From a virus: a DNA stretch of 55,555 nucleotides. Positions 2,432 to 47,232 of this stretch are shown piece after piece (position 1 is the first letter of the stretch; each line of letters opens with the position of its first letter). The translations under genes were made by a program, and so were the position numbers. A model generated the notes under the pieces. The model saw only the letters and a list, made by a program, of their open reading frames with translations. It ran no database searches and was not told where the DNA came from. The DNA is taken from positions 1-55,555 of IMG/VR virus record IMGVR_UViG_3300005265_000014. One strand, written 5' to 3'.

Positions 2432-4303
2432 ATGAAACGACGTGACGCGCTAAAAGCCATTTTAGGGGTGTTTACTACCCCTTATATTTTGCAAGCCTCT
2501 CAGCGGAGGCTCCAACTTTTCGGCTGGCGACGTGACGCGCACTCCCTGCAATCCTTCATAAAACGACACCAGTACCCCTTTATTTCGCAGCAGGACGCGG
2601 ATATTCGCGGCACCGGCAAGGGAAAGAAGGCATATTTGCACCTGGCGCTGGAGCGAGCGACCGGCAGGGCGTTCGTGCCACACAACCAAGGGGCACCCGA
2701 CTGCGTGAGCCATGCTTCAGCACTGGCTGTTGACTTGCTGAACGCGGTACAAATTATCACCCGGCGTGAGCCGTACAGGTGGGTGGCTCCCACTGCCACG
2801 GAACCGATTTACGGCGGCTCCCGAGTGGAAATTGGCCATTACACAGACGGTGACGGAAGCACAGGGCACTGGGCGGCCGAGTGGCTGGCTTCATATGGCG
2901 TGCTTTTGCGTAAACGCTACCCAGGCTACGACTTTTCCGAGTACAGTGCTGATTTGGCCCTCAAACTGGGCCAGGAAGGCTGCCCGGACAGCCTTGAGCC
3001 AGTGGCGAAGTTGCACCCGGTCAAGAAAACGGCCATTTGCACCTCATACGAACAGTTGTGTGACTGCATTTACAACGGCTACCCGGTCATGGTTTGCTCG
3101 GATGTTGGGTTCGGCAACGGGCATTGCCGCCGCGATCGTGAGGGGTTTTTAAGGCGGAGAGCCTGGCCTTGGCCGCACGCGATGGTTTTTGGCGCGTACG
3201 ACGACGAGTACAAACGGCCGGGTGCATTGTGCTTCAATAGTTGGGGCTGCTTTGACGAGCAAACAGAAATTCTAACAGATCAAGGTTGGAAGCTATTCAA
3301 AGACCTCGACCAAACAGAAAAAGTTGCCTCGCTTAACAAAAACCACGAGTTGGAATATCAATCGCCTACTTGTTATCACCGTTATCAATTCAACGGTCAC
3401 CTGTGGCATCACAAGTCTCGCGACATTGACTTTGCAGTAACTCCAAATCATAAACTTTACTACTCGGCTCGCGGAAGCAACGACTGGAAATTTGCAAGAG
3501 CCGATGAACTTCATAAATGTGTCAAGTTCAAGAAAAACGCCAAAAACACGAACAAGGATGTAAAGTGGCACTACGTAGGCGGTGTAAAAGTCGATATGGA
3601 CTTGTGGCTTGAGTTCCTTGGTTACTGGCTCTCTGAAGGACATGCAATTAAGAAACAAGCATATTTCAAAGGAGCAAAGAACGGAAAACAAAGAGTAGTT
3701 GGAGTCAGTCAACTCAAGAAAGAAAGCCGCAAAAAGATGTGGGCTTGCTTACAGCAACTGCCTTTCAAGTTTCACAAATCCAAGAAAGGCTTTACACACT
3801 GCTGTAAATCATCACTTTTGGAAGAGTTGTTACCTTTTGGACACGCGCATGAAAAATACATTCCTGACTATGTATGGGAATGTTCAGAAAGACAGTTGAA
3901 AATTTTCTACGAAGCATTGATGCTAGGTGACGGAAGTATTTCTAAATGTTCTACAGGCGTCAAGCGAACTTATTACACGTCCTCCAAGCGCCTTGCAGAT
4001 GATTTTCAACGTCTACTGCTGCATTGTGGCTTGTGTGGAGATGTTTCCTATACTGACAGGCGGGGACGAAAAAACGGAGAAAACAACACAACTCGGTATA
4101 TTGAGTATCGAATTGGAATAAAAGTAAAAGCATTTGAACAGGCTGTCGACTATACTCCTGTTCTTCTTCCGTATGAAGGTGAAGTATTTTGCGTCACTGT
4201 TCCTAACCACACAATTTATGTCCGACGCAACGGCCGCGCTGTATGGATGGGGAACTCAGATTGGATTAGTGGTCCGACGCGGGGTAAGCAGCCAGAACGC
4301 TGA
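2432..4303 (+). CDS. Papain-like cysteine peptidase precursor with intein; C-terminus frameshifted
   Basis: The extein parts (residues 1-272 and 609-623) look like a C1-type cysteine peptidase. Gln86 and Cys91 sit in QGAPDCVSHASA, the catalytic His249 in WPHAMVFGAYDD, and Asn269 in FNSWG. The N-terminus MKRRDALKAILG resembles a twin-arginine leader, suggesting export of a folded protein. An intein (residues 273-608) begins directly after the NSWG motif. After splicing only 15 residues follow before a stop. The expected tail (ADTVDSMLRQGDSFAFS) is present in the next frame, so the gene seems to carry a small deletion or frameshift. Possible roles are peptidoglycan-crosslink cleavage or host-protein cleavage; no substrate can be read. 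Confidence 0.8.
   Translation: MKRRDALKAILGVFTTPYILQASQRRLQLFGWRRDAHSLQSFIKRHQYPFISQQDADIRGTGKGKKAYLHLALERATGRAFVPHNQGAPDCVSHASALAVDLLNAVQIITRREPYRWVAPTATEPIYGGSRVEIGHYTDGDGSTGHWAAEWLASYGVLLRKRYPGYDFSEYSADLALKLGQEGCPDSLEPVAKLHPVKKTAICTSYEQLCDCIYNGYPVMVCSDVGFGNGHCRRDREGFLRRRAWPWPHAMVFGAYDDEYKRPGALCFNSWGCFDEQTEILTDQGWKLFKDLDQTEKVASLNKNHELEYQSPTCYHRYQFNGHLWHHKSRDIDFAVTPNHKLYYSARGSNDWKFARADELHKCVKFKKNAKNTNKDVKWHYVGGVKVDMDLWLEFLGYWLSEGHAIKKQAYFKGAKNGKQRVVGVSQLKKESRKKMWACLQQLPFKFHKSKKGFTHCCKSSLLEELLPFGHAHEKYIPDYVWECSERQLKIFYEALMLGDGSISKCSTGVKRTYYTSSKRLADDFQRLLLHCGLCGDVSYTDRRGRKNGENNTTRYIEYRIGIKVKAFEQAVDYTPVLLPYEGEVFCVTVPNHTIYVRRNGRAVWMGNSDWISGPTRGKQPER
3248..4255 (+). mobile_element. Intein with LAGLIDADG homing endonuclease (336 aa)
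   Basis: The intein begins at Cys273 (CFDEQTEILTDQGWK, block A) and ends with WMGN before Ser609, the +1 nucleophile. Block B is seen as TPNH (Thr337, His340), and block F as VFCVTVPNHTIYV near 584-596. Two LAGLIDADG-type helices, FLGYWLSEGH near 395 and ALMLGDGS near 495, mark a two-motif homing endonuclease. The penultimate residue is Gly rather than the usual His, a known variant. The reading frame is intact throughout, so both splicing and endonuclease may be active. The insertion falls between the catalytic NSWG motif and the tail of a cysteine peptidase. Confidence 0.93.
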
Positions 4304-4400
4304 TACAGTTGACTCGATGCTTCGGCAGGGCGATTCGTTTGCGTTCAGTTCCTACGTTGGGTTTCCTAGGTTCGTGATCCCTGATTATACACTGCACTAA
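4299..4400 (+). pseudogene. Out-of-frame C-terminal tail of the cysteine peptidase
   Basis: This short frame reads ADTVDSMLRQGDSFAFSSYV followed by a further 13 residues to a stop, with no start of its own. It fits the end of the upstream peptidase, whose own frame stops at 4303. A small indel near 4290-4300 would join the two; residues usually linking the halves also seem missing, so the event may be a short deletion. Sequencing error, natural decay and recoding cannot be separated here. Confidence 0.6.
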
Positions 4401-12216: not shown

Positions 12217-12353
12217 GCTCTTGTACCGCAAACTTAGAGCTTACCCTACCGCGAACGCGGGTAAGCCTCACGTAGACCAGGGTGCGTGTGGTTTGTTTTA
12301 ACCTGGGAGTCGGTTTTACTCAAACTTACTCAAAACTGTATAGGGAGTTCAAA
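12217..12353 (+). promoter_or_regulatory. Hairpin-rich leader upstream of the coat gene
   Basis: Two possible stems overlap at the junction. The first pairs TAAGCTCT (12214-12221) with AGAGCTTA (12236-12243). The second pairs GCTTAC with GTAAGC (within 12239-12266) around an inner CCGCG/CGCGG stem. They share bases and could be mutually exclusive. No T-run follows, so a simple terminator is unlikely. A GGGAG site at 12345 region precedes the coat ATG. Confidence 0.5.
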
Positions 12354-14676
12354 ATGAACCAATACCCTCTGTGTTACGCGAATGACAATGACGCTTTGAT
12401 CCCTGAGATTTGGGCTTGATTTTGGGCCAGCTAAAAGGTGACTTTTAGTAAAAAACACTGAGCTATATGCGGGAACATCTCGCTAGGTTAGGAGTACGAT
12501 GCTCAGAACATGCAGCTTTTGCAAGGAAGCCAAAACGCTCGACAAGTTTGACAAGAATGGCAAGTACCTTTATTCCGTCTGCAAAGATTGCAAACGGTTA
12601 AAGACGGTTTGCCGTCGTTATAACTTGTCGATCAAAGACGTAGAGTTTTTGTTCGCGTTTAAGAACTGCATGTGCTGTGATGAACCGTTCAAATCGACTA
12701 GGCTTCGCCATATACACCACACTTCATCCGGTGTTCGCGGAATCGTTTGTCAGAGGTGCAACCATGTGTTGGGCCAGGAGACAAAAGAAGATTTGTACCG
12801 TATTCAATCTTGTATTGAGTTCATTGCAGGAGCACGTAAAAACCTCCTAAATAGAGACAATCCGCAGGAAAGACCTTCGACAAAAGAGTTGAAAGAAGGA
12901 ATCCTCAACGACTACACGCTCGGCTCATACAGAATTTGTAACAAGTGCGGAGAAGAAAAACCCTTTTCTGAATTTTCTCAACACAGTGTAAAGAATCCTT
13001 GGAAGCGACTCCATTGTAAGTCTTGTGCCAGTGCCATGACGGCCGCCAAAACTTACGGAATCACCCTGCAAGAAGTTTTTGATCTGAGAAAGAAAACTCA
13101 TTGTGACTGCTGTAATAGCAAGTTCACAAAGAAAAACAAAGCGGACATTCATCATATTGGTGTTGTCCGGGGTTTGGTGTGCCATCACTGCAATCGACTC
13201 CTTGTCGATGAAAGTCGTGAACAACTTCTCCGACTGCTCGCTTGCGAGCGGTGGATTCTGGATGATGAAGATATAGTCTGCTCTGCATGGAGACATGCAG
13301 AGGCGAGCAGAAATGACTCGCCCCTCGCGTGAAGCGAGAGTAACAAACGGCAAGAGTCTCTGGCGATCCTCGAAGAGAACATGGTGATGGCCAATTTGGT
13401 CCACCGCGATTTTAGTCCGTTGGTCGCTAGCTACGGTGACGTGGTTAACACCCGTCGGCCGAGCGAGTTCAGCACCAAGCGTAAGACGCAGGCTGACAGC
13501 GTTGTGAACCAAGACGCGACCTCGACGAACGTGCAGGTTCCCTTGAATCAGCACGTCTACGTTACGTTCACGATCAAGGACGAGGAAGCGTCCATGTCCT
13601 TCAAGGAGCTGATCAGCTACTACATGGAGCCCGCTGCAATGCAGATGGCTCGCTCCGTGGACCGGATTCTGCTCGGTCAGGTTCAGCGTTACCTCGCCAA
13701 CAAGGCCGGTAAACTGGCTACTATGTCCAGCTCGAACGCCAAGGACTGGATTCTGGAAGCGCGCGAAGTCATGAACGTCAACAAGGCGTATCCGAACGGT
13801 CGCAACTTGGTCATCAGCCCGCAGGCCGAGACCGAGATGTTGAAGACCGAGCTGTTCATCGCTGCGAACCAGCGTGGTGACGGTGGGACGGCTCTTGAGG
13901 AAGCACGTCTCGGCCGTGTCCTTGGCTTCGATACGTACATGGACCAGAATGTGCCTTATCGGTCGATCACCGACGCCGATGTTGCCACTTTGAACCATGC
14001 TGCCGGTGCCGCTGCTGGTGATACAGGCAATAAGGCTGTCACAAGTGCCACAGAAGTGACAAACGGTTCGTTTGTTTGGTTTACTGGTGATGCACAGCCG
14101 CAGATCGTCTCGGCTCATACTGGCTCTGGTTCGACGACTGGTGTTACGCTTGTGGACGCCTACAAGTATGACGTTTCCGCCAACGCTGTTGGTTATGCGT
14201 TCTTGCCTGCCACTGTCGCTGACACTTATGCGGTTGATTATGCTAAGGCCATTACGCTGAATGGTATCACGTCAAATAAGCTGCCAGTCGTTGGCCAACT
14301 GTTGGCGTTTGGTACTGGGTCCGGTCGCCATACTTACACGATTATTGAAGTTGATACTGTCAACGCAACGAGCGTGAAAGTTTGGCTGGATCGTCCACTG
14401 GATACAGGTGTGACGGCCGCTGATCCCGCGTTTCCTGGCCCGCACGGCTCCTTCTGCTTTGCGTTCCATCGTGACGCGTTGGCTCTGGTCACTCGACCGT
14501 TGGCAGTTCCGGCGAATTCGCTGGGTGTTCAGTCTGCGGTTGGCAGCTACAACAACTTGGCGATGCGTGTTGCGATGCAGTACGATATCACCAGCCAGGG
14601 TACCAAGGTTACCTTGGACATGCTCTGCGGCGTGGCTGTCTTGGATGGAGACCTCGCCTGCGTTCTGCTTGCGTAG
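12354..14676 (+). CDS. Major coat protein, P22-like, split by a group I intron
   Basis: Exon 1 is 12354-12416 (21 codons, ending ALIPEIWA) and exon 2 is 13351-14676 (starting QESLAILEEN). Joined, they give an uninterrupted 462-residue protein reading ALIPEIWAQESLAILEEN across the junction, the conserved N-terminal helix of P22-type coats. Downstream, NLVHRDFSPLV and an Ala-rich spine helix follow, and an inserted Ig-like beta domain lies at about 230-400. Without splicing, translation stops at a TGA whose first base is the first intron base, giving a 21-residue peptide. A strong terminator follows the gene. Confidence 0.9.
12417..13350 (+). mobile_element. Group I intron, td-like (IA2), in the coat gene
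   Basis: A 934-base intron. Stems found by eye: P1 exon GGCU (12413-12416) with GGCC (12425-12428), a U-G pair at the splice site; P2 12431-12436/12443-12448 with loop GGTGAC; P3 12459-12464/12922-12927; P4 12469-12473/12861-12865; P5 12478-12481/12854-12857; P6 12866-12869/12902-12905; P6a 12874-12878/12895-12899; P7 12910-12914/13274-13278; P8 12930-12935/13255-13260; P9 13281-13289/13294-13302 with a GAGA tetraloop; P9.1 and P9.2 follow. The intron ends in G13350. The AGATATAGTC segment and P9 closely resemble the T4 td intron as I remember it. L5 and L8 are each greatly enlarged by coding sequence. Confidence 0.93.
12499..13332 (+). CDS. Intron-encoded protein with two endonuclease VII-like units
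   Basis: The 277-residue protein is a tandem duplication. Unit 1 has zinc pairs C5/C8 and C28/C31, then CMCC (57-60), HIHH (71-74), VRGIVCQRC (79-87). Unit 2 has C147/C150, C173/C176, CDCC (202-205), DIHH (217-219), VRGLVCHHC (223-231). Both match the recombination endonuclease VII type of HNH/beta-beta-alpha-metal nuclease. A TTAGGAG site precedes the ATG. Unit 1 (residues 1-118) is encoded in intron loop L5 and unit 2 (146-252) in L8. The linker and C-terminal tail are encoded by ribozyme core. Expected role: homing of the intron into intron-less coat genes. Confidence 0.88.
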   Translation: MLRTCSFCKEAKTLDKFDKNGKYLYSVCKDCKRLKTVCRRYNLSIKDVEFLFAFKNCMCCDEPFKSTRLRHIHHTSSGVRGIVCQRCNHVLGQETKEDLYRIQSCIEFIAGARKNLLNRDNPQERPSTKELKEGILNDYTLGSYRICNKCGEEKPFSEFSQHSVKNPWKRLHCKSCASAMTAAKTYGITLQEVFDLRKKTHCDCCNSKFTKKNKADIHHIGVVRGLVCHHCNRLLVDESREQLLRLLACERWILDDEDIVCSAWRHAEASRNDSPLA

Positions 14677-28725: not shown

Positions 28726-28798
28726 GCCACCGTCGCCCAGTTGGCCGGGAGGTCGATTTGTAATCGACATGACGCAGGTTCGAGTCCTGCCGGTGGCT
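28726..28798 (+). tRNA. tRNA-Thr, anticodon TGT
   Basis: Acceptor stem GCCACCG pairs with CGGTGGC; anticodon stem GTCGA/TCGAC encloses loop TTTGTAA with anticodon TGT (reads ACA); T-arm GCAGG/CCTGC encloses TTCGAGT. The D-arm is GCCC with GGGA, weak at one pair. CCA is not encoded. It lies within the tail genes, directly ahead of the lectin-like pair. Confidence 0.92.
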
Positions 28799-37612: not shown

Positions 37613-38078
37613 TTACTCTCTCCATCAGTTTCTTTTCCAGTGCGATTAACGAAGGCGTCTTCTCACCGTCCGCTATCACGAACCTCAAATCCGGCGCGGG
37701 GTACTTCTTCCCTTTAGCATTGATCTCTTTCTGCGCCTTCCAATGCTTCATCCGTTTATCGAATACCTCCTGGTCGATAATCGGCCGGTCATTGTAGTTC
37801 AACTCAGCAAGAGCCGACAAGTTCCACACAGCGTGCGCCAGATGGGCGCATCCTGAATCCTGATCATAGAACTCACCAGCAAAGAAGTAGTCCAAATGAC
37901 GAAACAGCGAATCGAGATACTCGGCGTCCGGCTTGTTGCCCTGTCGCCAATTCCCTTCGTTGTACTTGTTGGCTCCAAACTCTTTCACCCTTGCCACAGC
38001 CGCGTTCATCCAGCGAAAGCTGCGAGCGAAGTAGGATAGTTTCGGCTTGCCTTGGTTGTAGCGTAACGCTTCACTCAT
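37599..38078 (-). CDS. dATP/dGTP diphosphohydrolase-like protein (DUF5664 type)
   Basis: A 159-residue helical protein with LRYNQGKPKLSYFARS, then VKEFGANKYNEGNWRQG, SLFRHLDYFFAGEFYDQDSG and CAHLAHAVWNLSALAELN. These match the dATP/dGTP diphosphohydrolase N-terminal family, an all-alpha NTP pyrophosphatase group with an acidic metal site (Glu/Asp in FAGEFYDQDSG). It would hydrolyse deoxynucleoside triphosphates to monophosphates and adjust the precursor pool. A relative, MazZ, is used in Z-genome phages, but no PurZ is seen here. It lies between the primase-helicase and exonuclease genes with 4- and 14-bp overlaps. Confidence 0.8.
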   Translation of the reverse strand: MSEALRYNQGKPKLSYFARSFRWMNAAVARVKEFGANKYNEGNWRQGNKPDAEYLDSLFRHLDYFFAGEFYDQDSGCAHLAHAVWNLSALAELNYNDRPIIDQEVFDKRMKHWKAQKEINAKGKKYPAPDLRFVIADGEKTPSLIALEKKLMERVNEST

Positions 38079-40807
38079 GTTGTCTCCTTTGTCACTTTAC
38101 CATTCACTTTCTTGTAAGGCTCCGAAGGGGTGGCCTTCGGGTCAAACGACAAGTTACCAATGATAACTTGGTTGACCCTGGTCCCACGCCCAATTGGGAA
38201 CCTCTCTGACAATCTATCTCGAATGGCTTTGTTATTCCACTCAGCCTTCTGATAGTCTTCCAACGTATCGTGGAACCGTTTCTTCAGGTCCACAAGTTTC
38301 ACAGCCTGCCCTGGTATCAGGAAGCAGTAGTCTTCGATGAATTGCTCCAATTCATTGACGTTCCCGGCGGCGGCTTCCAGTTTCCCTGCTGTCTCGATCA
38401 CGGGCAGCATCAACCGTCCTGTTGGTGGCGGTATCTCGAAGTCCATTAGAGTTCGCAGAAAGTGGGAGGCTTCAGTTTTCAGCCTCACATGCAACTCGTC
38501 TCGCGGAATCTCTGCTTCCAGCGTCGGAACATTCAAAGCCGTGATCCGCGTGTCGCCAGGGAACACCGGCAGGTTACTCCGGTTGTTGGCCATTTGCACG
38601 AAGTGCAAGGTGCTGGGCAGGTCTTCCACTTCTCTGTATTTGGCATGGATCGAGATGTTAAGTCCAGTTGTCCATTCTTTCAGTTTGTTGTATGCGGACG
38701 ACCCGGCCTTGGAAATGTCAACTTCGTCGATCACCGCCAGGATACCGCCTCGCAGTTCGCCGTTGTACCCTTGCTCAGACGTAAGGGCTCTGTCGGCTTT
38801 CACAACTCCCTTGGTCAGCAGCAACGCCAAGGCTTCATGGAATGAAGACTTGCCGCAATTCTGAGGTCCATACATGAACAGGTAAGGTAACTTGCCGAAC
38901 GGGTTTTGGAACATGCAGGCCACCCAAGCGGTCAGGTAATCGCCACCGTTCATTATTCCCCATTCCTTGCACCACGGTAGTTGAGGGATGTATTCATTCA
39001 GTTCTACCCCACAATGAGCCATGATCCTGTCCCATGTCGGGTGGTGAGGTGATTCGCCTTCCTTCAGCACGGCTGGTGAGAAAGCAAACTGAGCTGAGTC
39101 TCGATTCCATCTCCGGCCACCTGGGTACTCTGGCTGGAAAGGCTCGTTGACCAACACCCATGACTTGAAAACAGCTCCGCCTAAGATCGGGTCCGGCTTC
39201 TGGAACCCTAATGTAAGCAGGTAGGACTTGATGTTCTCTCGCGGGTGTTGTGTCCACTCTTCGCTAACATCTCGCAGCACCCAAGAGTCGAACTTGTTTC
39301 CAATCTTCAGGGCTCGTACTTTGTCGTCCAACTCAGACCAAAGGTTCTCTTCTTCAACCTCTTTGTCTGCTGTTACGATCGCGTCTCGTATCCACCGCTC
39401 CCACCCTTTTGGAGTCTTCACAAAGTGAGGAAAGTCGCCCTTGTCATCCCCTCGCTTCTTTTCGATTACCAGAACCACCTTGTCGCCCGCTCCAAGATAG
39501 AGGGACAAAGCACGCCCTTCCGCCTTGGCCGGTAACTGCAACTCTGATTCCAACAATTGAAGTGCTGCGAGTAGGTCGGAGGATCGGTCAAACATGAACC
39601 CTTGTTTACTCTCAGGGCCTTCATACCCGCCGCACGCCAAGCATATCTGTCGCAAGGTCGCGGGGAAGTTGTAGGTGGTGTGAGTCCACTTGCCTTGCTT
39701 ATCCCACAATGGGTGCTCAACCGTATTCTCACCGAAGCGGTAAACATCCCAAGCACCGTCTGGCTTCGGACGCATGAAGCAGTTGGCCTTACCTGGGTCG
39801 GTATCCAACGTGTTTGTGTCGAACAGACCACGTAGTGGCTTGCCCGCTTCCTTGAACTGGTCATACACTTGCTTCAGCCCGGCCGTGTGCCCTTGCCATA
39901 AGTGGTGGTCATGAACCCACAAGCTGGTATGACCAGTGCTCTCCAACGCTTCCAGAACTGCCAAGTGTGATTCATCCAGTTGCACCTTGGCGAAGGCTTG
40001 AGTCATCTCGTCTAACTCGTCACCTTTGGTTGTACCATCGGGCGTCCATCCTTGGACGCGCACTTTGGTTCTGCTGCCGGAGACGACTTCAAGATGGTCC
40101 CGCCAATTCAACGGAACATCAGCAGCAGTGAGGAAGTTTGTTGCGGGCTTCACCAACTCATAACCACGATTCTCTTTCGTGGCATTTACGTGGTGAATCC
40201 ACATAACCATGCCGAAGCAATCGACCTTGCCTTCAAAGTCGAAGCCGGTGGCTTTCGCCAACACCGGCAGCATGGCTCGAGCAACCGCAGAGTGCTCGTT
40301 ATGATTCTGAGTGATCGGATAAGGTTCTTGGAACCGTATGTAAATGTGCCGCCCGTTACCGCGCGTCGAGCGGACAACTTCGAGCCACGGAACGTCAATC
40401 GTATCAAGTTTTTCAATCTCTTGCTGTGGGATACCAACGCCTTCAGCATGGTCGAGAATCGAATCAAAGTCAAAACCCACCATGTAGGTCTGACGATTCT
40501 TCCAGTCCCACCAAGTTGTGCCAATGGCTTTCAAGCGATTGCCGACAATAAACTGGATTGGTGGATCGCTGTAATTCGGCTCAGTCGCGGCATTATAAGG
40601 CCAGCGGATTGGGCCGAACACCTCGCCGTCTTGCTCATACTTACTGGTGTCGGGAATCTTGTTGCCGGTCTTGTGACACATTATTTGTGTCTCAAAGCGG
40701 GCGGGGTCTGCACCCCAGCGAGATATAAGGTCTAAGTTGTTGTGTTCTTTCGACAGTACATTATCATAGTACAGCTTGAACGCTGTGGTCACTGACGGGT
40801 TTGGCAT
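38075..40807 (-). CDS. Primase-helicase (AEP primase plus SF3-type helicase)
   Basis: A 910-residue fusion. The N-terminal archaeo-eukaryotic primase shows the catalytic pair in GFDFDS (Asp113, Asp115) and the nucleotide-binding His154 in RSTRGNGRHIYI. The middle (about 250-560) includes a Cys-containing linker region. The C-terminal helicase has a Walker A GPQNCGKSS near residue 650, Walker B LAVIDEVD near 690, and an Arg-finger-like segment (NNRSNLPVFPGDTR) further on. The order matches D5-like primase-helicases of phages and plasmids. It unwinds DNA and makes primers for the family A polymerase at the other end of the window. Its promoter must lie in the repeat-rich divergent region just upstream. 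Confidence 0.9.
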   Translation of the reverse strand: MPNPSVTTAFKLYYDNVLSKEHNNLDLISRWGADPARFETQIMCHKTGNKIPDTSKYEQDGEVFGPIRWPYNAATEPNYSDPPIQFIVGNRLKAIGTTWWDWKNRQTYMVGFDFDSILDHAEGVGIPQQEIEKLDTIDVPWLEVVRSTRGNGRHIYIRFQEPYPITQNHNEHSAVARAMLPVLAKATGFDFEGKVDCFGMVMWIHHVNATKENRGYELVKPATNFLTAADVPLNWRDHLEVVSGSRTKVRVQGWTPDGTTKGDELDEMTQAFAKVQLDESHLAVLEALESTGHTSLWVHDHHLWQGHTAGLKQVYDQFKEAGKPLRGLFDTNTLDTDPGKANCFMRPKPDGAWDVYRFGENTVEHPLWDKQGKWTHTTYNFPATLRQICLACGGYEGPESKQGFMFDRSSDLLAALQLLESELQLPAKAEGRALSLYLGAGDKVVLVIEKKRGDDKGDFPHFVKTPKGWERWIRDAIVTADKEVEEENLWSELDDKVRALKIGNKFDSWVLRDVSEEWTQHPRENIKSYLLTLGFQKPDPILGGAVFKSWVLVNEPFQPEYPGGRRWNRDSAQFAFSPAVLKEGESPHHPTWDRIMAHCGVELNEYIPQLPWCKEWGIMNGGDYLTAWVACMFQNPFGKLPYLFMYGPQNCGKSSFHEALALLLTKGVVKADRALTSEQGYNGELRGGILAVIDEVDISKAGSSAYNKLKEWTTGLNISIHAKYREVEDLPSTLHFVQMANNRSNLPVFPGDTRITALNVPTLEAEIPRDELHVRLKTEASHFLRTLMDFEIPPPTGRLMLPVIETAGKLEAAAGNVNELEQFIEDYCFLIPGQAVKLVDLKKRFHDTLEDYQKAEWNNKAIRDRLSERFPIGRGTRVNQVIIGNLSFDPKATPSEPYKKVNGKVTKETT

Positions 40808-43818: not shown

Positions 43819-44330
43819 GCGCGGCGATACTGGTTCAATTCTCTTCGCTTGAGTTGCCTCGTTACCTGAAGGTGGGTCGCAAGGCACTCGATCGAAGCCT
43901 GTCAGAGCGGGCCGACGACGGCGGTCATGAACCTCCACTGCATCACATGCTCTGCATTGCTGCCATGAAGTCACCAGACCTCAAACCTAGCGCCGAGGCG
44001 TGCCGCCCTTACATGAACCTGTTCCATGCTGGCTTCGTTGTGATCGCCGAAGATTACGACTGGGCGGAGATACTTGAAGCGGCCAGTATGCCCTCTATCA
44101 TGACAGAGACCATCGAACGCGGGTATAGTGTCGGGTTCATCGCTGGCACACTCTCACAGTGGCGGGACGCAATGCTTCGCGGGTGTCAACCAGAAATCAT
44201 GCGAGGTGTTCGAGAAGCGTTCAATTCTGTCTATACCGAGTTCAAGAACATCGGCCTCTCGCATTTGTTCGAGTTCAAAACGAAGCCAAACCCAAGAGAT
44301 CACACTTTTCTACTGGAATACAAGAAGTAA
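43815..44330 (+). CDS. Unknown 171-residue protein
   Basis: It starts in a TGAGC/ATGA junction with the previous frame and ends 4 bp before a promoter. The sequence is mostly helical with mixed charge (MLCIAAMKSPDLKPSAEACR, then IMTETIERGYSVGFIAGTLS). No motif is recognised. It closes the transcription unit that began after the terminator at 43.3 kb. Its location between ParB-like and helicase genes suggests DNA metabolism, but there is no direct evidence. Confidence 0.55.
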   Translation: MSAAILVQFSSLELPRYLKVGRKALDRSLSERADDGGHEPPLHHMLCIAAMKSPDLKPSAEACRPYMNLFHAGFVVIAEDYDWAEILEAASMPSIMTETIERGYSVGFIAGTLSQWRDAMLRGCQPEIMRGVREAFNSVYTEFKNIGLSHLFEFKTKPNPRDHTFLLEYKK

Positions 44331-44333
44331 CAC

Positions 44334-44361
44334 TTGACAAATCTCTCACATGTGGTATAAT
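44334..44361 (+). promoter_or_regulatory. Sigma-70-type promoter, leaderless for the helicase gene
   Basis: TTGACA, a 16-bp spacer ending in TGTGG, and TATAAT. Only six bases separate the -10 box from the helicase ATG, so transcription should begin at or next to the start codon. Two more promoters of the same pattern lie at 52024 and 55291. Confidence 0.88.
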
Positions 44362-44367
44362 TGAAGT

Positions 44368-46885
44368 ATGGAAGAACTCAAACTTATTACGCAGACGAAG
44401 AAGGGCACACTAATCAAGTCGCCTGTTACGATCGAGCGCAAAGACGGGCGCATCTTCTTCATTAAGTCACCCTTCTCGTTGAAAGACGAGATCAAAGCCA
44501 TGAAGGGTTCGAGGTGGCACGGGTTCATTCCAGACGACGGTCGCAAGATTTGGTCGGTTGAAGACTGCTACCGGAACAACTTCCAACTTGACTTCATGGC
44601 TGGTGGCAACCCGTATGAAAACTGGGACCAGCCTCTGAAGCATTTTGAGTATTCACGCGGGTTATGGGACCATCAGAAATTGATGGCCGACCACTGCCTT
44701 ACGTATCACTATCAGATTCTTGCGGCAGAGATGGGGTGCATCGACGGTGACGCGGTTGTTCATTGTAATCGCGCTGGCAAGGGGTTTTCACTTTCACTGC
44801 GTGAACTATGTTATAAATTTCACGGAGGGGCAACATATAAGGGCACTTTCCCCTGGTGACACGGTTATGGTGTCTGCTCCGAAAGGGTATAGCAAAAATA
44901 CAAAGGTGGCGCAAACACCCCCTAAGAAACTTGAAAAAACCACTAAGCAGGGGGTGGGTTGCTTTATTGATAAAGACGGATATGTGCGAGTGTCAGGTCT
45001 TAGAGACCACTATCGAAATAACAACGGGCAGGTTTATGAGCATATCCTGGTGATGGAAGAGTTGCTTGGCAGGAAAATACAAACGGGTGAGTGTGTGCAC
45101 CACTTAAATCATCAGAGGTGGGATAATAGACCCTGCAACCTTACTTTAGTGTCTTCTAACTCGCGGCACGCACGGATACATTCAAAAGACACGAAGAACA
45201 ACGTCTTTTCTGGAAAGCCTGATGTTTATTATTTTACATTTGAAAAGGTCGTCAGTGTAGAAGACGCAGGTGAAACAGATGTTTATGATGTTGTGTGTGA
45301 GGGGCCTTATCACAATTTCGTTGCTGATGGCGTAGTCGTTCATAACTGTGGTAAAACGCTGTCCGCTATCGAAGTGATGGAGTTGAGTGGGGTCACTGAC
45401 TGGTGGTGGGTTGCTCCGAAGTCCGGTCTTGCTGCTGTTGAGCGCGAGTTCGAGAAGTGGGGACTCAAGGTACAGCCTCGGGTCATGACCTACGAGCGTC
45501 TGAGAATCGAGATCGAGCGGTGGGAAGACGGGATGCCCGCTCCACAAGGCGTGATCTTCGATGAATCCAGCAGGCTGAAGACGGCCACCTCAAAGCGAAC
45601 AAAAGCCGCCATGCACTTGGCAGACGCTATTCGAGACGAGCATGGGTGGAACGGCTTTGTCATTCTTATGTCCGGTACACCGGCACCGAAGTCCCCTGTT
45701 GACTGGTGGGCTCAGTGCGAGGTGTGCTATCCCGGCTTCCTGAAAGAAGGATCAGCAAAAGCGTTCGAGTGGCGTCTGGGCTTCTTCGAGAAGCAGATGA
45801 CCAACAGCGGGGAGTTCTGGAAGCGGAAGGCGTGGCGCGACGACGAGACCCGCTGTGAAATCTGCGGGGAATACAAGTACCTGCTGAATGAAGATGACGA
45901 AGTTGAAGGCCGGTGGGTAGTCGATGACAATGGTGCCCCCATCCTGAATCCGTGTCACGACACCTTGGACATATTCGGCGACGGTAAAGCACATGAGTGG
46001 AAGCCGTCGAAGAACGAGGTGGCCTACGTTTATGAGCGTCTTGACGGGTTGGTGCTGCCGCTCGCCAAGAAGGATTGCCTCGACATTCCTGACAAGATTT
46101 ACCGAGAGGTCAACCTTGAGCCGTCATCCACAATCAAGCGGGTGGCTCGGGCTCTGGCTCAGTCGGCTGTCAGCGCGATACAAGGGTTGACTTGGCTGCG
46201 TGAGTTGTCCGACGGGTTCCAATATCGTGAGAAGCAAGTTGGTGAGATTGATTGCAAAACGTGTAATACCACCGGTAAAGCCTTTGTCTGGGAAGAAGGC
46301 AAGAAGCAGGAGGACGTTTGTGAAGTCTGCGGTGGAAAAGGTAAGATTCCGAACATGGTTCGGGAGACCAAGCAGATTCAGTGCCCGAAGGATCAAGCGG
46401 TGCGTGACCTGCTGGAAGAGAATGAAGACCAGGGACGTATCGTGCTGTTCGCCGGTTTCCAAGGCTCGATTGATCGCATTGTCGGCATCTGTCACAAGCA
46501 GCAGTGGAATGTTGTGAAGGTGGACGGACGTGGGTGGAAGATTCTTCCGTGCGATGATACCAAGATTCCGAAGACAGTCAAGCCTCTTTCCTACTGGGCG
46601 AATCTGGATAACCCGCGAGTCGCCTTTGTTGCTCACCCGGAGTCGGGCGGTATGGGCCTCACGCTTACTGAATCACGGATGGCTGTTTTCTATTCAAATG
46701 ACTTCAAGCCGGAAAGCCGGATGCAGGCGGAAGATCGTATTCACCGGCCGGGGATCGACGAGAACAAGGGAGCAACAATCGTTGACCTGTTCCACCTCGG
46801 TACAGATCGAAAAGTGTTGAGCGTGTTGCGGGACAACCGCCGACTAGAGAAACTTACTCTTGGTGAGGTACAAGAAGCACTATGA
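44368..46885 (+). CDS. SNF2-type DEAD-box helicase, interrupted by a frameshifted intein
   Basis: The extein is a superfamily 2 helicase. The Walker A is ILAAEMG/CGKTLSAIEVM, cut by the intein after the Gly; motif II is GVIFDESSRLKTATSKRTK (DESS), and motif VI is SRMQAEDRIHRPG. A zinc-like CKTCNTTGKA/CEVCGGKGK insert of DnaJ type lies before motif IV. The N-terminal 100 residues include LWDHQKLMADHCL, a Q-like motif. The 610-bp intein is not a multiple of three; frame 1 stops at 44857-44859 and frame 2 continues from there. As written, the full helicase cannot be made by simple translation. Confidence 0.85.
44737..45346 (+). mobile_element. HNH-type intein, apparently shortened and out of frame
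   Basis: Begins at Cys124 of the helicase (CIDGDAVVHCNRAGKGFSLS) and ends with VVVHN before the +1 Cys. Block A and the C-terminal blocks (VYDVVCEGPYHNFVADGVVV) are present. An HNH endonuclease lies between: HILVMEELLGRKIQTGECVH, then HLNHQRWDNRPCNLTLVSSN. Block B (T-x-x-H) is not found; the frame changes near 44820-44855, between KFHGGATYK in one frame and RALSPGDTVMVSAPK in the next. This suggests loss of roughly 60-70 residues around block B. Splicing would be expected to fail. Confidence 0.85.
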
Positions 46886-47232
46886 ACCCTGAACCCATCG
46901 CAGCCTTGAAACTGGAAGGTAATGAACTGCTTACTCTCGACTTGAGAAGCATCTACCGTGGCGAGTACGCCAATGACGTTATGGATTTGCTCACTCTGTC
47001 AGAGACGGAGAACACAGAGGTGGTCATCTCTGATACCGGCTTGCTGTACGACATTCGATACGGCGGGCAGTCAATTGGCTACTTCGCTATCCGAAACATT
47101 CTGAATACGTTGAAACTCAAACTGCGTCAAGCAGAGTTGATGTTTCACGGGCTGTTAACGGACGACCGCTACATTCAACTTCGCGGCGTCAAGTATTTGA
47201 TTCCATTGTTTGGAGTTAGTGATGTTTGCTGA
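46882..47232 (+). CDS. Unknown 116-residue protein
   Basis: ATGA overlap with the helicase gene. The sequence LLTLDLRSIYRGEYANDVMD and later YIQLRGVKYLIPLFGVSDVC alternates strands and helices; no family is recognised. Its last 11 bases overlap the next small gene. Helicase-coupled expression suggests a DNA metabolism partner. Confidence 0.55.
   Translation: MNPEPIAALKLEGNELLTLDLRSIYRGEYANDVMDLLTLSETENTEVVISDTGLLYDIRYGGQSIGYFAIRNILNTLKLKLRQAELMFHGLLTDDRYIQLRGVKYLIPLFGVSDVC

What the first reader, a model, noticed from the sequence alone, without database searches (positions are those of the whole stretch)
44737..45346. Decaying intein in the Walker A motif of the helicase
The P-loop is split exactly between AAEMG and CGKT. 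The intein has block A, an HNH domain and the C-terminal splice blocks, but block B is missing and its length (610 bp) breaks the frame. If real, the phage lacks a functional helicase of this type, or relies on recoding; alternatively two polypeptides are made and rejoined by a split intein. A split is imaginable because a second start could be used near 44872 (ATGGTGTCTGC).
Basis: partly seen in the sequence, partly recalled or inferred. Interest (0 to 1): 0.75.

Follow-up and report, generated by a model that had tools for sequence, protein, structure and literature searches.

The report
Broken intein inside phage SNF2 helicase
A self-splicing protein insert (intein) in a phage helicase gene has lost about 200-235 bases from its core, including the catalytic histidine block, so as assembled the phage cannot make this helicase; this looks like ordinary, recent decay of a mobile element or possibly an assembly fault, not a new splicing system.

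Summary
An HNH-type intein (44737-45346, 610 bp) splits the Walker A motif of a SNF2-type phage helicase (AAEMG|CGKT). Blocks A, HNH, F and G are present. Block B is absent and the frame is broken. Relatives in IMG/VR settle what is missing: 21 intact relatives keep the whole profile (positions 1-244) in one frame, while the window keeps 1-35 and 95-244. Orthologous helicases with the same intein (L050/L051, L038-L040) and with an empty site (L003-L005 and others) exist. Against the nearest intact intein (L050) about 233 bp are gone (about 200-233 bp across relatives), which is not a multiple of three. The lost part holds most strands of the N-terminal Hint half and TPDHE. It is nowhere else in the window. 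Neither a ribosomal frameshift nor a split intein can replace it, although restart at ATG 44867 is possible. The exteins show no other damage, so the lesion is recent or an assembly artefact; reads were not available. Inteins and exteins have discordant trees, so the intein arrived by transfer. In passing: the other intein-bearing gene here (papain-like protease) also carries a small frame-breaking deletion, while most other genes, compared with relatives, are clean.

The parts
44368..44736 (+). N-extein of SNF2-type helicase, ends ...ILAAEMG
   Evidence: ORF in frame 1; aligns with intact helicases L002-L013 and at 55-71% with intein-bearing orthologues L038-L040, L050
44737..44844 (+). Intein N-terminal remnant: Cys1, block A, up to HGGATYKG
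   Evidence: 78% identical over 36 aa to L050 intein; profile positions 1-35, E 2e-11
44840..44857 (+). Deletion junction: about 200-233 bp missing, block B included; frame shifts here
   Evidence: alignment with L038-L044, L050, L051; profile positions 36-94 absent
44857..44859 (+). TGA stop ending the N-part ORF
44867..44869 (+). ATG in the C-part frame, 7 nt after the stop, with GGTGA (44855-44859) as possible Shine-Dalgarno: possible restart
   Evidence: anti-SD duplex -7.2 kcal/mol; 17% of all ATGs at 41-55 kb do as well or better
45035..45160 (+). HNH_3 homing endonuclease domain, conserved HH..N..N residues kept
   Evidence: Pfam PF13392, E 4.4e-7; invariant columns in A1
45245..45346 (+). 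Intein C-terminal splice blocks F and G, ends ...VVVHN
45347..46885 (+). C-extein of the helicase: CGKT..., SNF2-related region and Helicase_C, no further break
   Evidence: dN 0.19 vs L038 with saturated dS

Best explanation
This is a class-1-type HNH homing intein that entered the Walker A motif of an accessory SNF2-type phage helicase and then suffered one recent internal deletion of about 200-233 bp. The deletion removed block B and most of the N-terminal half of the Hint splicing core and shifted the frame. As assembled, translation of the N-half stops at 44859. A second product (HNH + intein C-part + helicase C-part) could be made by restart at ATG 44867, but the two cannot be spliced and the P-loop stays split, so this helicase is null. 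Shown: the anatomy, the missing segment, its absence elsewhere in the window, and intact relatives at the same site. Inferred: single event, recency, and loss of function. The deletion may be fixed in the phage, a minor variant, or confined to the sequenced molecules.
For: Intact inteins at the identical site in orthologous helicases: L038/L002, L039/L024, L040/L006, L041-L044, L050, L051. All 21 full relatives (L038-L058) cover profile 1-244 in one open frame. The window covers 1-35 and 95-244. The window is closest to L050: N-part 78%, C-part 53%. W-to-GD spacing is 66-67 residues in six relatives, and the corresponding codons are 1 nt apart in the window. A predicted fold of L050 puts six strands (45-111) in the missing segment and matches solved inteins: Ssp DnaB mini-intein 6frg E 3.9e-9, Mxe GyrA 1am2 E 8.4e-8. 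His B:10 is the most conserved intein residue, and only two inteins were known without it, one of them a pseudogene (PMC4031507; PMC3196547). The exteins are undamaged, with end branches equal to L038 (0.2 each) and dN 0.19 against saturated dS, so the lesion is young.
Against: No reads and no independent copy of this phage were found (an exact pattern across the N-extein/intein border found nothing), so a real deletion and an assembly or chimera fault are not separated. The exact ancestor is lost, so the breakpoints are known only to about ten bases and a two-step loss is possible.
Confidence: 0.74

Rival explanations
1. Assembly or library artefact: the true phage has an intact intein, and the deletion arose from chimeric molecules or a wrong path where intein-plus and intein-minus (or variant intein) genomes coexist.
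For: Exteins undamaged. Of the genes compared with relatives, the only two frame breaks not explained by the group I intron lie in the two intein-bearing genes, which is what trouble at polymorphic sites would give. 21 of 21 full relatives are intact.
Against: The lesion lies inside the intein, about 100 bp from one extein border and 500 from the other, not at the polymorphic border. A graph assembler needs reads that cross the joint, and the joint has at most a few bases of possible overlap (inference). The capsid intron site in the same record is clean.
Confidence: 0.21
2. Natural split intein: the two ORFs are made separately and trans-spliced.
For: TGA 44859 and ATG 44867 with a GGTGA motif would allow coupled translation. 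Phage fractured genes with split inteins and endonucleases are known (own knowledge of the gp41/NrdJ type; such structures appear).
Against: Block B and six predicted strands are in neither fragment nor elsewhere in the record: best hit E 1.5, against 3e-19 for L050 with a profile that left it out. No full relative is split.
Confidence: 0.02
3. Recoding: a programmed +1 ribosomal frameshift near CCC TGG TGA joins the two frames.
For: The two frames overlap (44684-44856), and CCC TGG TGA could in principle slip (inference).
Against: The joined product would still lack about 75 residues of the Hint core; no full relative needs a shift here.
Confidence: 0.01
4. Host-gene decay first: the helicase is dispensable and the whole gene is a pseudogene.
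For: The genome has another P-loop replication protein (DUF5906, 38075-40807) and a family A DNA polymerase, so the SNF2 protein is probably accessory.
Against: No second lesion in about 1.9 kb of extein and no acceleration on the branch.
Confidence: 0.02

Closest known systems
Class 1 inteins with Hint fold (Ssp DnaB, Mtu RecA, Mxe GyrA)
   Same: Cys1, block F, HN|C junction; intact relatives have the T..H block B and a predicted Hint fold
   Different: The window copy lacks block B and about 75 residues, and its frame is broken
Arthrobacter sp. FB24 Arth_1007 (DnaB) intein, annotated as of phage origin, an intein pseudogene (PMC3196547)
   Same: Degraded intein without His B:10; there shown not to splice
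   Different: There the loss is of catalytic residues in a putative class 3 intein with tiny exteins; here it is an internal frame-breaking deletion, with an HNH domain and full helicase exteins kept
Mycobacteriophage P-loop and helicase inteins (PMC5050341)
   Same: Phage inteins in Walker A motifs of ATPases; helicase hosts recorded
   Different: I saw no broken or frameshifted intein in the passages read there; hosts are mostly terminases
Split inteins / fractured phage genes (gp41-1, NrdJ-1 type)
   Same: Two ORFs with intein parts on either side
   Different: In functional split inteins the two halves together hold all splice blocks; here block B is lost

Membership tests
HNH-containing class 1 intein (as origin) | Block A with Cys1 at the N-junction | tested here: met
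   CIDGDAVVHCNRAGKGF, 78% to L050 over 36 aa
HNH-containing class 1 intein (as origin) | Block B T..H | tested here: not met
   Profile positions 36-94 missing in the window; present in all full relatives
HNH-containing class 1 intein (as origin) | Blocks F and G ending His-Asn followed by Cys+1 | tested here: met
   VYDVVCEGPYHNFVADGVVVHN|C
HNH-containing class 1 intein (as origin) | HNH endonuclease domain | tested here: met
   PF13392, 4.4e-7
Functional intein | One continuous frame through both exteins | tested here: not met
   610 bp, remainder 1 mod 3; TGA at 44857-44859
Functional intein | Protein splicing | not testable with these tools
   needs expression
Split intein | All splice blocks present, shared between two genes | tested here: not met
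   Missing segment absent from all six frames of the 55,555-base record
SNF2-type helicase host | Walker A and Helicase_C in an orthologous protein | tested here: met
   Helicase_C 1.3e-6; 71% to L038 C-extein; empty-site orthologues AEMGTGKT/AEMGVGKT

The most novel reading that the evidence does not exclude
Homing itself damages host genes: both intein-bearing genes of this phage (helicase, papain-like protease) carry frame-breaking deletions in or next to the intein, while the other genes that could be compared have none, as if endonuclease cutting followed by faulty repair left dead alleles.
Probability: 0.08. Interest if true: 0.5.

Novelty: new member of a known kind. Interest (0 to 1): 0.27.

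Why it matters
It documents an intein caught early in decay: splicing core lost before the endonuclease and before any extein damage. This is the reverse order of the usual homing-cycle picture, in which the endonuclease degenerates first because splicing is under constant selection (PMC8966425). Such a state should be short-lived unless the helicase is dispensable. It also shows transfer of this HNH intein family among phage helicases.

Tried and rejected
Nucleotide search of public phage genomes with 44000-47000: no match. Exact pattern across the extein/intein border in IMG/VR: none. Search of bacterial and archaeal genomes with the intein alignment: only HNH-domain hits. An idea that the TGG in the window is the conserved W of W-D-x-S-I-P-T, giving a CCTGG microhomology, was weakened by L050, whose W lies about ten residues further on, so the exact breakpoints stay open. 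The first profile of the missing segment was contaminated by one over-long row and was redone with a positive control. Programmed frameshift and split intein rejected because the missing segment is absent.

Full report
What is there. The helicase gene starts at 44368 and reads to ...ILAAEMG at 44736. The intein begins with TGC at 44737 (CIDGDAVVHCNRAGKGFSLSLRELCYKFHGGATYKG...) and the frame stops at TGA 44857-44859. From 44684 to 46882 another frame is open and reads ...RALSPGDTVMVSAP..., the HNH domain, blocks F and G (...VYDVVCEGPYHNFVADGVVVHN) and then, from 45347, CGKTLSAIEVME... to the end of the helicase. The intein is 610 bp. Pfam gives HNH_3, Intein_splicing (C-terminal half only) and Helicase_C.

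Relatives. IMG/VR holds orthologous helicases at up to 72% identity. Several have no intein and read AAEMGTGKT or AAEMGVGKT (L003, L004, L005, L008 and others). Others carry an intact intein at exactly this place: L002/L038, L006/L040, L024/L039, L041-L044, L050, L051. The same intein family also sits in the P-loop of other helicases (for example L045-L049). Each of 21 full relatives matches the whole 244-position family profile in one open frame. The window matches 1-35 and 95-244 only, in two frames.

What is missing. The nearest intein is that of L050 (78% over the N-part, 53% over the C-part). Its residues 37-111, with TPDHE, have no counterpart in the window. From the L050 codon positions the loss is about 233 bp (inference; about 200 bp by the W-to-GD spacing of shorter relatives). 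Either figure is not a multiple of three. A predicted fold of L050 (mean pLDDT 77.5) places strands 45-47, 54-60, 63-85, 90-93, 98-102 and 108-111 in this stretch, and the model matches solved Hint-fold inteins. So the loss removes most of the N-terminal half of the splicing core. A profile of the missing segment finds nothing in the six frames of the window (best E 1.5), while a profile made without L050 finds L050 with E 3e-19. The record is the whole held genome.

Consequences. His B:10 is the most conserved intein residue. Of two known inteins without it, one is a pseudogene and the other compensates with a lysine (PMC4031507; PMC3196547). Here the strands that carry it are gone as well, so splicing is very unlikely. 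A ribosomal frameshift would join the frames but not restore the fold. Restart at ATG 44867 is plausible (GGTGA, duplex -7.2 kcal/mol) and would make an HNH/intein-C/helicase-C polypeptide, but the P-loop stays divided between two proteins. The phage also encodes a DUF5906 replication protein and a family A DNA polymerase, so loss of an accessory SNF2 protein may be bearable (inference).

History. On exteins the window groups with L038 and L040 (96/99). On the intein it groups with L050 and L051 (100/99). This discordance fits transfer of the intein between phage lineages. The exteins show no further stops or shifts, have the same branch length as the intact L038 orthologue and dN 0.19-0.26 against saturated dS. 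The lesion is therefore young, or not in the phage at all. In the homing-cycle view the endonuclease is expected to decay first (PMC8966425); here the splicing core went first, most simply by one accident.

Real or artefact. No reads were available and no second copy of this phage was found. I compared the window with ORFs of seven related phage contigs. About 45 kb of genes were compared, a few of them only partly covered. Sense-strand frame breaks appear at three places only: the helicase, the papain-like protease that holds the second intein (a break near 4294 that costs about 17 bp against L079/L090), and the capsid gene, where the break is explained by a group I intron (RF00028, 12408-13300, E 3e-20). 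Two unexplained breaks in the two intein genes could mean trouble at polymorphic sites in assembly, damage linked to homing, or coincidence. I put a real deletion at about three in four and an artefact at about one in five.

Verdict. A real feature, correctly read, of a known kind: an intein in decay. Not a split intein, not recoding. Interest is modest.

Noticed in passing
2432-4400 (+): Papain-like protease with a second, LAGLIDADG-type intein (3248-4255, continuous frame) just after NSWG. The C-extein is itself frame-broken near 4294, about 17 bp missing against L079/L090; the rest reads on at 4296-4394 in another frame.
   Followed up: partly
12351-14676 (+): Capsid-like gene interrupted by a group I intron (Rfam RF00028, 12408-13300) that encodes an endonuclease VII-type ORF (12499-13332). 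Related phages G008 and G009 have the gene uninterrupted.
   Followed up: partly
28726-28798 (+): A tRNA gene in the tail region (Rfam E 5.5e-9).
   Followed up: no
L041-L058: One HNH intein family occupies the P-loop (MG|CGKT) of several different phage helicases in IMG/VR; intein and extein trees disagree for the orthologous set.
   Followed up: partly
L077 (PP511596, Dulem virus 38): An annotated polymerase/primase contains an HNH intein-like stretch matching profile 81-244; not marked as intein in the record.
   Followed up: no
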